From: Halichondria panicea
Lineage: Eukaryota > Porifera > Demospongiae > Suberitida > Halichondriidae
Direction of reading: 5' to 3'
DNA length: 64,000 bases
Assembly (NCBI RefSeq): GCF_963675165.1
Contig: NC_087392.1
Location: 1,627,001 to 1,691,000 of the forward strand
In this document: positions 10,001 to 16,000 of the stretch, piece after piece
Position numbering within the stretch: the first letter of the stretch is position 1
Layout of the letters: every line of letters starts with the position of its first letter
Notes under the pieces: model-generated
Told to the model about the DNA's origin: nothing
Databases searched by the model: none
Seen by the model: only the letters and a program-made list of their open reading frames with translations
Position numbers and translations under genes: made by a program

Positions 10001-13000
10001 AACTCCTGGAGAGAGAAAAGAAAGGCCGTACATGACATACATTTTGGTGTAAAAACATATTAGGCTAAACCGAGAAACAAACAAAAGATTGGAGCTATCT
10101 GATATTATTTTTATGTACATGTAGGCCCCTTCGTTTCGAATCAGCTCTGTAACTAAAATAACAAAAATTATAATTTTATGAAAGCTTTATCTAACGCTAC
10201 ATGAAGAAAATCATGCTTAAAAACACATCACCACGTACTTGTTGTCTCCCAGTCCCAGCTGCCCGTACTCTCCGTCACCCCAGGAGAAGACTTTGCCATC
10301 TGCAGTGAGGGCCATTGCATGTCTCCCTCCTGTGCTAACTGCCACCTTCCTCACAACATAGGTTGTCAGGTCACCAATGATCTTAGGGACAGCTACATCA
10401 GTCAGTCCCCCCACTCCCAGGCGGCCATTGGTGCCCTCCCCACTGGCATACACCTTCCCATCTTGAGAGACTATGAAGAGAGTTTTAGAGCCTCCAACGA
10501 GTTGAATTGGGTGGAGCTTGGCTAGAGCATGGCTCTCATATGGACTCTTCACCTGTGAGGAGGGAGAATTATACCAACTAGAACTGACTTATTATTTTGA
10601 TGATGCTTAATAGTAAACAAAGTTGAAGTCAAAGCTCGATCGATCTGTTACACAGCTTAATCAGTCCGAACTACATGTACTAAAGTACATGTAACTAGAG
10701 CATTACACATGTGCATACCTTAGAGTCTGAGTTTCCACTGCCTAGCTGAGTTCGATCGTTGAGGCCCCACACAAACACTTTATTAGAGTGACTGTCTGCC
10801 CCGCCCTCCATCTTCCTCCGTTGCTTGCGGACTAGACCACTCTCTTTGGATTCTGATTCGTCGACAGTGAGGAAGGAGAAGCTAGCCGCCACCTCGTCTT
10901 CATTCATGTCCACGCGTCCAATCACACTCACTCCGTGGATCTTGACATCAATGCCACCACTCTTGCAAGACCGGACCACTATCTCCATGATGGAGTAGAA
11001 CTGGGTGGGGGAAATGCAGTTAGCTGACGTGAACTATGGGATATACACAGCACAGCATACAGCACAATAAAGGTACAGTACAGTACACAATTAGTCAAGT
11101 GTGCTCAAAGTTTAGTACTACATGTACATGGCGGTGATACTTGAAATTCAATTCATGTAGAGTAGTACAGCTCAAAGGGTACATGCTCTTCAAGGTAGGA
11201 ACACCATTACTATACCCCCCTCCTCTTACCTCAGTGAGTCCACTGACGAGAATACACTCTCTGCAAGTGGAGGAGACTGAAACTTGCTTAATCTCCTTGA
11301 GTAATCCGATGCTGTTCCCTGCCAGCACTGCCACCACACTGGGCATGTAGCTACTGTCACTCTGCTCAACCTGCACAGAATACATAGAAGATCATTAAAA
11401 AAATATATATAACAGTATAAAATGTTAGTGGCTAAAATTCATGGCCAACAAAACTATGGGCAACAAAATTAGACAAATCAGGCCCAAATGTAACATTTTA
11501 TATGCAATTCTCCTTCACTCTTCACCTGTATTGCCAGCTGCTCAATTAGGATGTTTCGTTGGAGCTCAAGTCGTACCCAGTGTTTGCCCTGAGGGCCACT
11601 GGACTGCCAGTAGGTGCTGTGGTTGCCATCGATGAGACGATAGGTCTGGTTCTCGTTGCTAGAGACTGAGAGGTGACGCACAATCTGGTCCCAGTCCATC
11701 ACCACTGAACCACCTCGCATCTTCTTCTTCTTACGTCTGTGTGTGGGTGTGTGTGCGAGTGTGTGTGTGTGTGTGTGTGTGTGTGTGTGTGTGTGGGTGG
11801 GTGTGGGTGCATGTGTGTGTGTATGGGTAAAATTAGGTTGCTGTTCTCCAAGTAGAGCTGAACAGGCACACCACACACAAAACTGTGCATTGTATCCAAA
11901 GCAAGCACAGTAGTTACTAATTGTGCGTGATATATGGTACACACAATTCCTTACTTGAGAGCCCTCTTGCGTGACCTTGGTGACCCCACGTAGACAGCTG
12001 CTTGTCCCTGATCATCGGTCCTCTCGAAGGCATGGTTGTGAGACTGTCCCTTGTAGAAGCAGTTCTGACAGAAATCAAAGTCAGCACACACCTGACAATG
12101 GTAGCGGACCCCCTCAATCGGGAACATGCCACATCCATTGCATCTGTGTGTGTGTGGGGTGATGAATATTATAATGATTACGATTGCACGTGCAGTACAA
12201 GTATTCATAATTATAGCTGTGGAATCTGCCAACTCAACACAGTACAGTAAACATTGCCTAAGTTGGTTCAGTTTAATAGTTAAGTTACAAGTAAAGGTTG
12301 AAGCCATGAGACTTCAGTGCTTGTTTTCTGCCATTTGCCTTTTGTTTCTTGGCAGTCAGTGTGCTGGCCAATTAAGCTATTTTCGTGACTATGAGAGGAG
12401 ACAGCAAGTGGTTGACACTTTTGAGAAAGCTTTAATAGCTAACTCCACTAACATCTTCATCCTACGAGACGCTCTTTTCCCAAGCAATGACTACCCATCA
12501 AGCAGTTTATACATTTTCTATCGCGTGCAATTACATGAAAATGTCACTTTTAATACGATAACACAATGGTGCAGGACCAGTGTTTTAGTACAGGCTAGCT
12601 CTTGGATGATGCTAACACTATCCTCTGGATTGATGGTCTATGTTCAAGGGCAAATTAACGAACATATATTATTTCCATCCTATATAGGACTGTCTCTGAA
12701 CATTAGCAACAACAATATTGAAGGAGGATTCAATGAAACAGATATCAGATATGCTGTTCAATACATAACACCGTGGGTGAGTGTAACCAAATTACATGTA
12801 CATGTTTACCTACCAATAATAAGAAATTAATGAACAAACTGCACACACACAGCTCCAGAGGTATGCAACTTTAGAGTCGGGAGAGAAAATATCACAGCAA
12901 TTGCTTTCAAATAAGGACAAGGGATATTTGTGTCAACACAGTTCATTCAACCTACTTCTAGTGATACTCACTGCATGCATAGTACTATGGATAGTTATAT

Positions 13001-16000
13001 TGGCGATTGTGAAAATGTACCACGTATCAAAAATGGACGAGTTTGAGCAGAAGATGAACTTGTCAATTATTCTCTCAATAGGAATAACAACTTTCCTATT
13101 TAACATCACTGAGATTGTGTTGAACATCATCGTACTAGATATTTTTGTGAAGGCTCAACAACGTGCTTCTCCCGGCAGTAATACAGGTCTTCTTGACCAG
13201 CACACTAACACAAGGTGGCTAGCTATAATAGCTTCAATTGCCATTTTCATCATTACAGCGATAATAACACAAAGTTTGCTTTACTGTTGCAACAAGTCAA
13301 CTAAACTACCTACTTTCTCCATCTGCTGCATCAAAATTAAATGGCTCTATCCATTCATTATTGCAAGCTTTTTTACATTCGTCTTAATAGAAGGAGCAAA
13401 CATCACACCAATGTTTCTGATGCTACTTAATGCACCACTGGTGACAATTTCCATATTAGTGTTCATTGTAACATATATTGGTGCCACTGTACTATGGTTT
13501 TCCTTCTATATTCTCAGTAGATTTCAAGGTGAAACATGGACAAAAGAATCGTTTCTTGGATTTACTTCTTCAATAGTGCTTCTATTAGTAATAGGTGTTC
13601 TCACATTGATTTACATGGTAACGCTATTAAGTGCCACAAGCGAAGAGAGTCCTGATCTGATAACCTACGTTGTTACGCTAATCCCATCGATCCTGTCTAT
13701 AATTGTTGGATACAAAGCAAAGGAGAAACTGTTCAAATACAAAACGACGGGAACCAACAAAGAAGAACAACATGATAGTGAGATTGCGACAGGAAACAAT
13801 GAAGAAGGAGAACAACAAGAACATAGTGAGATTGATATAGAATATAATGACAGTGAACAGCTGTATGTACGTTTCCCAGAAACCGTGATTTAAAATTTTT
13901 ATTCTTTAATTGCTGACTATATAATTGCTGACTATAATTGCGAGCACTATAACTTATCTAGACTGGAATTGCACTACTTGTACGACATAATGCAATGTGT
14001 GGAACTTAATGAGTGTGTCTTTACCTATGCATTTGCTATACCTAAAATTACGTGTAGTTACCGAGAATCAACATAAGTATATGAATAACCAAATAAAATT
14101 CATCATCAAAAATGTCAACTTAACAACTGAATTTGATCAGTACGTGCATATATAAGTAGAAGTTTGCATCCATCTAAATCTATATAGCCAGAGAAAAAAT
14201 GAAGCTATATCAAGCATTTGCAGTTTTCCTTGTACTAATAGGTACAGGTAGCTGTACACATTTGTGTAGCACTTACGATGAGTTTGAAAGGTGTGAGCAG
14301 ATTATCGATACATTTGAAGAAGCCTTAATCAATGAAGAAGCAAACATTTTTGCACTTAGGACCCTTTTTTTCCCAAGCAACCAACGTCCAGCTTCCAACT
14401 TTTTGGTCGGATATCATATTATCGGGCCTAGACAAGATGGGAATATAACCCTTGATGTCAGAGGCTGGTGCAAGAGCACTGTTCATACAATAGCAAGCCC
14501 ATATATGGTTCAAACACTCTTCACTGGACTAACTTATCCCTATCATATGGAAGTAAGTCGTCACACTCCAATTCCAAGCCACCTACACATAAACATAACT
14601 GAATACACCTTCAGTAAAGAGGAAACCACTTATGCACTTGAGTATATCACACCATGGGTAAGTTCTTATTTACTTCCTACTTGTACAATGTCATGTATTA
14701 ACTATATTTATACATGTGCAGCTTAAAATGTATGCAAGGAAAGAAACACAGTCAGATAAAGTATCATATAAGGATGAAGAGAAAGGATACACGTGTGATA
14801 TCTACTCTTTTAATTGGTATTTAGCGGTGATTACAGTGATTGTAACTACAGCAGCAATTTGCATATCCTGGAAGGTACTGGATTATTTATTGAATTCCAA
14901 ATCTGAACGAGCTGAGTTAAACAGGGCAATGTTCTTCTCCTTAGGATTTGTAGCTTTCTTTGTCAACATTGTTGATGTCGCTATTATTGTATATGAAATA
15001 TACATTTACATTGATGGAATTCAGGAAGAAACAGACCATGATATAAGAAAGATTTCATTAACAGATTCGACTCTGGCGTGGCATGGGATATTTAAAATAT
15101 TGGAAATATCAGTTGGCCTTTTTGTATTTGTTATAGGGGGAGCCATCACAACTCACTGCCTCTCAACTGTTCTTAAACAACCACAGCTATGCAATATAAA
15201 CCATTCATGCTCAAGCTCAGCAAAAAATTGTTGCTCCTGTTGTTCCAAATTTGCTTATTTCCTATATTTTGCTAACTTCTTCTACTTCGCATATATGGTT
15301 GGTCTAAATGTATTGCCAACATTTTTGATGCTTTTAATTACACCAATCGAAACGATATCTGTATTGGTCTTCTATGTGTCACTGCTGTCCAGTGCTGTAA
15401 CGTTAGTGACCATCATCACAGTCCAAATAAAGATACATACATTGAATGAAAGTGATGGGACTGGAAGCAATGGGACTGGAAGCAATAGGACTGAAAGTGA
15501 TGGGACTGCTAACACGAAAGATAAAAAGAAAGCAATCCTTACAGGTTTCGTTTACTTTTTAGCACTGATTTCCATTGTTTTGCTTTTGGTGGTATTTCTA
15601 TTGACATTGGCTTCAACCACGAATGATAATGCATCAAATCTTGCTACAGTTATACTATCTTTTGGCTCTGCAACATTCTCAATATTAGGTGCCTATTTCA
15701 CCAAGAAAATATTGTCAAAGAAGAACAGCGCAACAAACAGTGGCAGTGATCTGGAAATAACTGAGAGGAAGAGCAGTGAAAACGAGACCGATCCACTCCT
15801 TCTAAAAAGTCGTTGTCAGACATTTTAAAGACACATTACTCAGTTAGTAGACACTTAACTTGAACACATACATGTAATTACATCATGTTATACCAATAAG
15901 CACTACACTATAAAAATTGTTTACTTACTTATGGCAAGAGTGCATAAGAAGAGAAGAGTGTCGAACTACTGATACTTCTACACAAACACTGTGCACAAAG

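What the first reader, a model, noticed from the sequence alone, without database searches (positions are those of the whole stretch)
12306..15828. Unrecognised family of signal-peptide + ectodomain + seven-helix membrane proteins
Genes A and B here, and C at 54278-55982, encode 503-530 residue proteins of identical plan: signal peptide, glycosylatable ectodomain of about 150 residues with a shared (K/E)AL....(N/G)..(F)xLR..FFPS motif, then seven hydrophobic helices and a charged tail. All three have one intron, in phase 0, exactly after the Trp ending the ectodomain (TPW| or ITW|). That conserved junction separates ectodomain and membrane module cleanly. I see no known GPCR, gustatory-receptor or channel signature. 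They could be lineage-specific chemoreceptors or transport proteins.
Basis: partly seen in the sequence, partly recalled or inferred. Interest (0 to 1): 0.85.

Follow-up and report, generated by a model that had tools for sequence, protein, structure and literature searches.

The report
New seven-helix receptor-like protein family
Three genes in this stretch belong to a large family of surface proteins, with a secreted-type head and seven membrane helices, that matched no family in the libraries searched and looks receptor-like but not like an ordinary GPCR.

Summary
Genes A, B and C encode 503, 521 and 530 residues: signal peptide, ectodomain, seven helices, cytosolic tail, with one GT-AG phase-0 intron after Trp. 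They belong to a larger superfamily: 38 ectodomain-exon loci in the same 131-Mb genome, on eight contigs and mostly clustered, 35 with a membrane-exon match downstream; 9 of 38 have a broken ectodomain exon. The phase-0 intron recurs across branches, but the Trp does not: Asn or Arg elsewhere. No Pfam hit of 15 membrane modules and 14 ectodomains reached its cut-off; no PDB sequence matched credibly. The loop plan is not GPCR-like: the TM4-TM5 outer loop is 3-12 residues in 18 modules against 29-30 in four adhesion GPCRs of the same genome. Best reading: an unrecognised, lineage-specific, N-out/C-in 7TM receptor-like family under birth-and-death evolution. Ligand, signalling and fold are not shown; both structure models were too weak to use. 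The host is probably a sponge (inference, not tested).

The parts
12306..12776 (+). Gene A exon 1: signal peptide (about 12306-12365) and ectodomain, 157 aa
12777..12852 (+). Gene A intron, phase 0, GTGAGT...CACAG, after TPW
12853..13893 (+). Gene A exon 2: 32-aa juxtamembrane part, seven helices (about 12949-13719), tail with YVRF and C-terminal ETVI; stop at 13891-13893
14199..14657 (+). Gene B exon 1: signal peptide and ectodomain ([21 protein letters not shown]), 153 aa
14658..14721 (+). Gene B intron, phase 0, GTAAGT...GCAG, after TPW
14722..15828 (+). Gene B exon 2: juxtamembrane part, seven helices (about 14818-15702), tail with ETDPLL
55455..55982 (-). Gene C exon 1: signal peptide and ectodomain, 176 aa
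55343..55454 (-). Gene C intron, phase 0, GTGAGT...CTCAG, after ITW
54278..55342 (-). Gene C exon 2: juxtamembrane part, seven helices (about 55216-54368), short tail; stop at 54280-54278

Best explanation
A, B and C are members of an unrecognised, lineage-specific superfamily of single-chain, N-out/C-in seven-helix membrane proteins, each with a signal peptide and a conserved ectodomain that bears glycosylation sequons and an FFPxN-type motif. Read directly or computed: the gene plan, seven helices, positive-inside topology, clustered copies with broken members, and the absence of known-family profiles. Inferred: they sit at the cell surface or in endosomes and act as receptors. In this reading the conserved ectodomain binds a common class of partner, the helices and the fast-diverging cytosolic loops set specificity or output, and the tail (with [DE]xxPLL in three of seven tails of the A/B and C branches) drives adaptor-mediated uptake. 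They would work like a chemosensory or recognition receptor repertoire without belonging to the GPCR families tested.
For: Topology: K+R 1.43 per 10 residues in inside loops against 0.95 outside, 14 modules. Superfamily: hhalign between six branches reaches E<1e-3 in 4 of 15 membrane pairs (A/B-C 5.6e-5, A/B-F 5.1e-6, F-E 1.6e-7, G-L056 3e-11) and 7 of 15 ectodomain pairs (among them A/B-F 1.6e-5, F-G 7.5e-8, F-E 2.6e-14), against 0 of 15 and 1 of 15 for reversed controls. Phase-0 donor at the end of the ectodomain found by script in 20 of 30 genes scanned, a matching acceptor in 23 of 30 loci. 38 loci, 9 broken. Recent copies: A and its copy 20 kb away (5 nonsynonymous, 0 synonymous changes in exon 1), two C14 copies. 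Omega 0.54-0.68 in three B-type exon-1 pairs and 0.46-0.80 in six exon-2 pairs. Tails: [DE]xxPLL in 3 of 7 against 0.013 expected by shuffling; the standard [DE]xxxL[LI] in 3 of 7 against 0.49, reached in 0.6% of shuffles (the narrower motif was chosen after viewing).
Against: No ligand, expression, localisation or G-protein evidence. The ectodomain is more conserved than the helices in 7 of 10 pairs and slightly less in 3 of 10, the opposite of a ligand-diversifying ectodomain. Omega below 1 may be relaxed constraint. In one search, 11 of 15 membrane pairs and 8 of 15 ectodomain pairs stay above E 1e-3; A/B-E, A/B-G, C-E, C-G and F-L056 membrane pairs and A/B-L056 and C-L056 ectodomain pairs score no better than their reversed controls, and C is tied in only through A/B. 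The threshold helix count deviates in five of 14 proteins (six in two G-type, eight in L035 and in L042, a split and a missed helix in F1595). Tails of other members lack the sorting motif except EMAELL in one G-type copy.
Confidence: 0.45

Rival explanations
1. A highly divergent true GPCR family (for example a relative of GOST or Hi-GOLD, where an ectodomain of GOLD type sits next to a 7TM) whose sequence has drifted beyond profile recognition.
For: N-out 7TM with a mature ectodomain of 108-190 residues before the bundle, as reported for GOST and Hi-GOLD; Hi-GOLD is reported from sponges (PMC12716839, passages). The best PDB profile hit was rhodopsin at E 0.029. Low profile scores against GPCRs are not decisive, because some branch pairs inside this family score as low (C-E 0.17%, C-G 0.35%).
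Against: The rhodopsin match aligns the family's first helices with rhodopsin residues 200-277, out of register. No family at E<=1 in 15 modules is a GPCR by name. hhalign against four adhesion GPCRs of the same genome gives under 0.5% for five of five branches, while two pairs of controls find each other at 99.8%. The TM4-TM5 outer loop is 3-12 residues in 18 modules against 29-30 in the controls; inner loop 1 is 12-49 against 8-12. The GOST model finds only C9 places.
Confidence: 0.25
2. A transporter, scramblase or channel subunit with an extracellular accessory domain.
For: Non-GPCR loop plan and a tight TM4-TM5 turn at a Pro that is the only invariant column of the 15-row alignment; helices are not better conserved than the ectodomain in most pairs.
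Against: No Pfam hit above cut-off, transporters and channels included. No charged column is invariant in the 15-row alignment, though its N-terminal part is visibly misaligned. Nine broken of 38 loci is, from general knowledge, more usual for receptor repertoires.
Confidence: 0.18
3. Endolysosomal cargo, adhesion or self-recognition proteins: surface proteins internalised through tail signals, with the bundle mainly an anchor.
For: [DE]xxPLL in B, the 1622k copy and the D copy, and YVRF in A; the ectodomain is better conserved than the helices in 7 of 10 pairs.
Against: The narrower motif was picked after viewing, B and 1622k are close relatives, and most other tails lack it. No localisation data.
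Confidence: 0.12

Closest known systems
Adhesion (class B2) GPCRs, PF00002
   Same: N-out ectodomain plus 7TM (recalled); abundant in this genome (164 exon-level matches at E<=0.001, 150 of 227 candidates scored)
   Different: No PF00002 match in 15 modules at E<=1; different loop plan, no long outer loop 2; ectodomain without a Pfam hit above cut-off
GOST family (GPR107/108, TMEM87, TMEM145, GPR180; PF06814) and the reported Hi-GOLD group
   Same: Ectodomain before a 7TM; trafficking roles listed for some members (table passage in PMC12716839)
   Different: The PF06814 model rings only at C9:3850181-3852043 in this genome.
Sponge GPCR census of Krishnan et al. 2014 (PMC4302439; abstract and sections 11 and 19 read)
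   Same: Catalogue of 7TM receptors in a demosponge
   Different: Selection needed a Pfam GPCR_A-clan match, so a family like this one would not have been counted

Membership tests
GPCR (GRAFS classes) | Profile match to a known GPCR 7TM model | tested here: not met
   No such family by name at E<=1 in 15 membrane modules; hhalign under 0.5% for five of five branches against four own-genome adhesion GPCRs, though some in-family pairs are as low
GPCR (GRAFS classes) | N-out, seven helices, C-in | tested here: met
   Signal peptide, hydropathy and positive-inside counts; computed only
GPCR (GRAFS classes) | Short inner loop 1 and long outer loop 2 (plan taken from the four controls; the TM3-loop disulfide is recalled knowledge) | tested here: not met
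   Median loops 24, 31, 34.5, 6, 27.5, 12 in 18 modules; controls have inner loop 1 of 8-12 and outer loop 2 of 29-30
GPCR (GRAFS classes) | 7TM fold and G-protein coupling | not testable with these tools
   Model pLDDT 45.6, pTM 0.36; Foldseek 0 matches at E<=0.001; no assay
GOST / Hi-GOLD | GOST_TM profile match | tested here: not met
   PF06814 finds four exon matches, all within C9:3850181-3852043; Hi-GOLD has no model in the library that I know of
GOST / Hi-GOLD | GOLD-type ectodomain before the 7TM | tested here: inconclusive
   No Pfam hit above cut-off for 14 ectodomains; ectodomain model pLDDT 36.7 is unusable
The superfamily described here | FFPxN-type ectodomain, phase-0 intron, L(K/L)xYA-like start of exon 2, seven helices | tested here: met
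   A, B and C; relatives:

The most novel reading that the evidence does not exclude
An animal-lineage receptor superfamily of at least 38 loci built on a seven-helix module that is not a GPCR fold, paired with a new ectodomain fold: an independently evolved 7TM sensory or recognition repertoire in an early-branching animal.
Probability: 0.25. Interest if true: 0.85.

Novelty: new variant of a known kind. Interest (0 to 1): 0.6.

Why it matters
Censuses of receptors in early animals that select by Pfam GPCR models would miss a family of this size. If receptors, these would be candidates for how such an animal senses chemicals, microbes or self. If not GPCRs, they would be a separate origin of an N-out seven-helix receptor plan.

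Tried and rejected
Structure route: AlphaFold2 with the three window proteins only gave pLDDT 45.6 (membrane module of A) and 36.7 (ectodomain of B); Foldseek of the former gave 131 matches at E<=10 and 0 at E<=0.001, headed by microtubule proteins, which I take as meaningless. The ectodomain model was not searched.

The rhodopsin hit of the PDB profile search was rejected: out of register and E 0.029. Ectodomain profile: best E 0.67. The best Pfam hit of the membrane modules, FAM163 at E 0.00066 in one of 15 (20.6 bits, cut-off 28.3), and Claudin_2, TssN and others were rejected as below cut-off and nearly all in one member.

Selection test: omega never above 1 where dS was measurable; A against its copy has 0 synonymous changes in exon 1, too few to interpret; G-type pairs are saturated or nearly so.

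A tree of 23 membrane modules separates the branches, but joins of C with A/B are flagged as long-branch joins, so no branching order is claimed.

Prokaryote genome scan with the B ectodomain: 34 pattern matches, no relative. Rfam and tRNA scans of the window: none.

Eight paper searches listed no paper that names this family. They cover open-licence PMC only, so 'not in print' is not claimed. Dropped from the locus count: a 21-residue fragment at C17:994912 and membrane-exon-only matches (such as C17:1076633, C5:6289837, C5:6400194, C5:6592257, C3:2616314). From memory, similar FFPxN / WxW proteins occur in other sponges; that recollection comes from no call.
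Full report
Observation. Splicing at GT-AG sites gives 503, 521 and 530 residues, each with one phase-0 intron after a Trp. A hydropathy threshold finds a signal peptide and seven helices in B and C, and in A the same plus one weak ectodomain segment. In an optimal-placement count an eighth helix adds 0.91, 0.52 and 0.93, against 1.75, 1.51 and 1.51 for the weakest of the seven. Over 14 modules inside loops carry 1.43 K+R per 10 residues and outside loops 0.95, which fits N-out and C-in. 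The threshold count is less tidy for some relatives: six helices in L055 and L053, eight in L035 and in the cut module L042, and in F1595 one helix split and the last missed. Two details of the finding need correction. The intron lies 32-42 residues before TM1, inside a stretch beginning (L/T)(K/Q)xYA. And the motif is looser than stated (A has LFPS, C has QSL).

Are A/B and C kin? Pairwise BLASTP hardly sees it. Profile comparison does: membrane modules E 5.6e-5 with 0.0084 for the reversed control, ectodomains 0.004 with 0.16.

A larger superfamily. Single-protein searches of the window's own genome (131 Mb, 39 contigs) gave a chain of relatives. A/B type: six loci at C16:1.602-1.642 Mb. C type: two loci on C16. 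E and F types: C17, C11, C14 and C15. G type: C3, C6, C5 and C11:6.526 Mb. Merging the ectodomain-exon matches by hand gives 38 loci: C16 8, C17 7, C11 4, C14 2, C15 1, C3 11, C6 3, C5 2. One 21-residue fragment was dropped. Two C17 loci (929k, 1062k) have no ectodomain match below E 0.001 in these searches; they rest on their membrane exons and on their likeness to the 1047k copy. In 35 of 38 a membrane-exon match lies downstream on the same strand, for those two C17 loci only at E 0.05-0.09 but with the expected exon start. The exceptions are C17:1047k, C3:2654k and C3:2666k. In 9 of 38 the ectodomain exon has a stop or a frame change. The search tool warns that its counts are lower bounds.

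Profile links between six branches. Membrane modules: E below 1e-3 in 4 of 15 pairs (A/B-C 5.6e-5, A/B-F 5.1e-6, F-E 1.6e-7, G-L056 3e-11), reversed controls 0 of 15. Ectodomains: 7 of 15 pairs (A/B-F 1.6e-5, A/B-E 1.7e-4, A/B-G 5.2e-4, F-E 2.6e-14, F-G 7.5e-8, F-L056 3.4e-5, G-L056 1.9e-24), reversed controls 1 of 15 (G-L056, 3.1e-4). Against: the membrane pairs A/B-E, A/B-G, C-E, C-G and F-L056 and the ectodomain pairs A/B-L056 and C-L056 do no better than their controls, and C is tied in only through A/B.

The intron is an independent link. A phase-0 donor at the end of the ectodomain was found by script in 20 of 30 genes scanned (two of these also show a second, internal candidate). An acceptor directly before a family-like start of exon 2 was found in 23 of 30 loci (the start pattern was taken from the family itself). 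The residue before the intron is Trp in A/B and C types, Asn in E and F types and Arg in G types.

Known families. Pfam hits of all 15 membrane modules and 14 ectodomains were seen with their cut-offs, and none reached its own (also scanned as sets). None of the weak hits at E<=1 is a GPCR family by name. The best for the membrane modules was FAM163 at E 0.00066 in one of 15 (20.6 bits against 28.3). PDB sequences: zero for A exon 2; profile searches gave rhodopsin at 0.029 out of register and nothing below 0.67 for the ectodomain. As positive controls, the same genome gives 164 exon-level matches to the adhesion-GPCR model (150 of 227 candidates scored, list cut short) and four to the GOST model, all at one C9 place; no listed place coincides with a family locus.

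Loop plan. Four single-exon adhesion GPCRs of the same genome were measured in the same way. Their outer loop 2 is 29-30 residues and inner loop 1 is 8-12. In 18 family modules outer loop 2 is 3-12 (median 6) and inner loop 1 is 12-49 (median 24). Five of 23 modules, cut short by the ends of their loci, were left out before that count; forced through the same routine they give outer loop 2 of 23, 5, 6, 6 and 30. A and its near-identical copy are both among the 18. The family's tight TM4-TM5 turn carries the one Pro that is invariant in the 15-row alignment (whose N-terminal part is visibly misaligned). hhalign of five branches against these controls gave under 0.5% probability, while two pairs of controls recognise each other at 99.8%; but in-family pairs such as C-E (0.17%) and C-G (0.35%) are as low, so this alone does not exclude distant kinship.

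Evolution. Among B-type copies omega is 0.54-0.68 (three pairs, exon 1) and 0.46-0.80 (six pairs, exon 2). The ectodomain is more conserved than the helices in 7 of 10 pairs and slightly less in the 3 B-type pairs; of the mature regions the cytosolic parts are the least conserved in 10 of 10. Tails of three of seven A/B- and C-type proteins carry [DE]xxPLL (0.013 expected on shuffling); the standard [DE]xxxL[LI] is in 3 of 7 against 0.49 expected. The narrower motif was chosen after viewing, and two of the three are close relatives.

Mechanism. Shown by sequence or computation: gene plan, topology, family size, lack of known profiles. Inferred: surface or endosomal receptor-like proteins, with a conserved ectodomain contacting a shared partner class and diverging helices and cytosolic loops setting specificity or output. 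Rivals are a divergent GPCR, a transporter or channel, and a cargo or adhesion protein. Structure prediction could not decide.

Literature. PMC4302439 (abstract, sections 11 and 19) selected sponge GPCRs by Pfam GPCR_A-clan matches, which would miss this family. PMC12716839 (passages only) reports Hi-GOLD and other new GPCR families, some with sponge members; their sequences could not be compared here. Eight searches listed no paper that names this family; the other papers were seen only as listings.

Limits. One genome only. No expression data.

Noticed in passing
L015 2876-3106 (+), beside the C17:1047k family gene: Reading frame that looks like reverse transcriptase by eye (recalled motif), suggesting a retroelement near a family exon; not searched.
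   Followed up: no
L020 and L017 (C16:1758352-1759958): The C-type paralogue has an in-frame TGA in exon 1 and a frame change early in exon 2, so it is probably a pseudogene; most of its membrane exon is still open.
   Followed up: partly
C16:1619135-1620703 and window 12306-13893: A near-identical copy of gene A lies about 20 kb away (exon 1: 5 nonsynonymous, 0 synonymous differences; exon 2 96% identical in protein), a recent duplication or gene conversion.
   Followed up: partly
C5:6294774 and C5:6501526 region: Adhesion-GPCR-like fragments (C5:6316880, C5:6494812) lie about 22 and 6 kb from broken family copies, not overlapping.
   Followed up: no
L028 74-703 and 916-2409: The C11:1594k gene carries SSGVVAAD repeats after its signal peptide and TQPAVD-like repeats in the loop between TM5 and TM6.
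   Followed up: no
window 2847-4031 (-), 11478-11942 (-), 53531-53980 (-), 62884-63252 (+): Neighbours with Pfam matches: HECT, a weak discoidin-like domain just below its cut-off, a mitochondrial carrier, a PDZ domain (4 of 10 frames scanned).
   Followed up: partly
window 23244-23706 (-): Long CA/GT-type repeat that reads as a (CV)n frame in the ORF listing.
   Followed up: no
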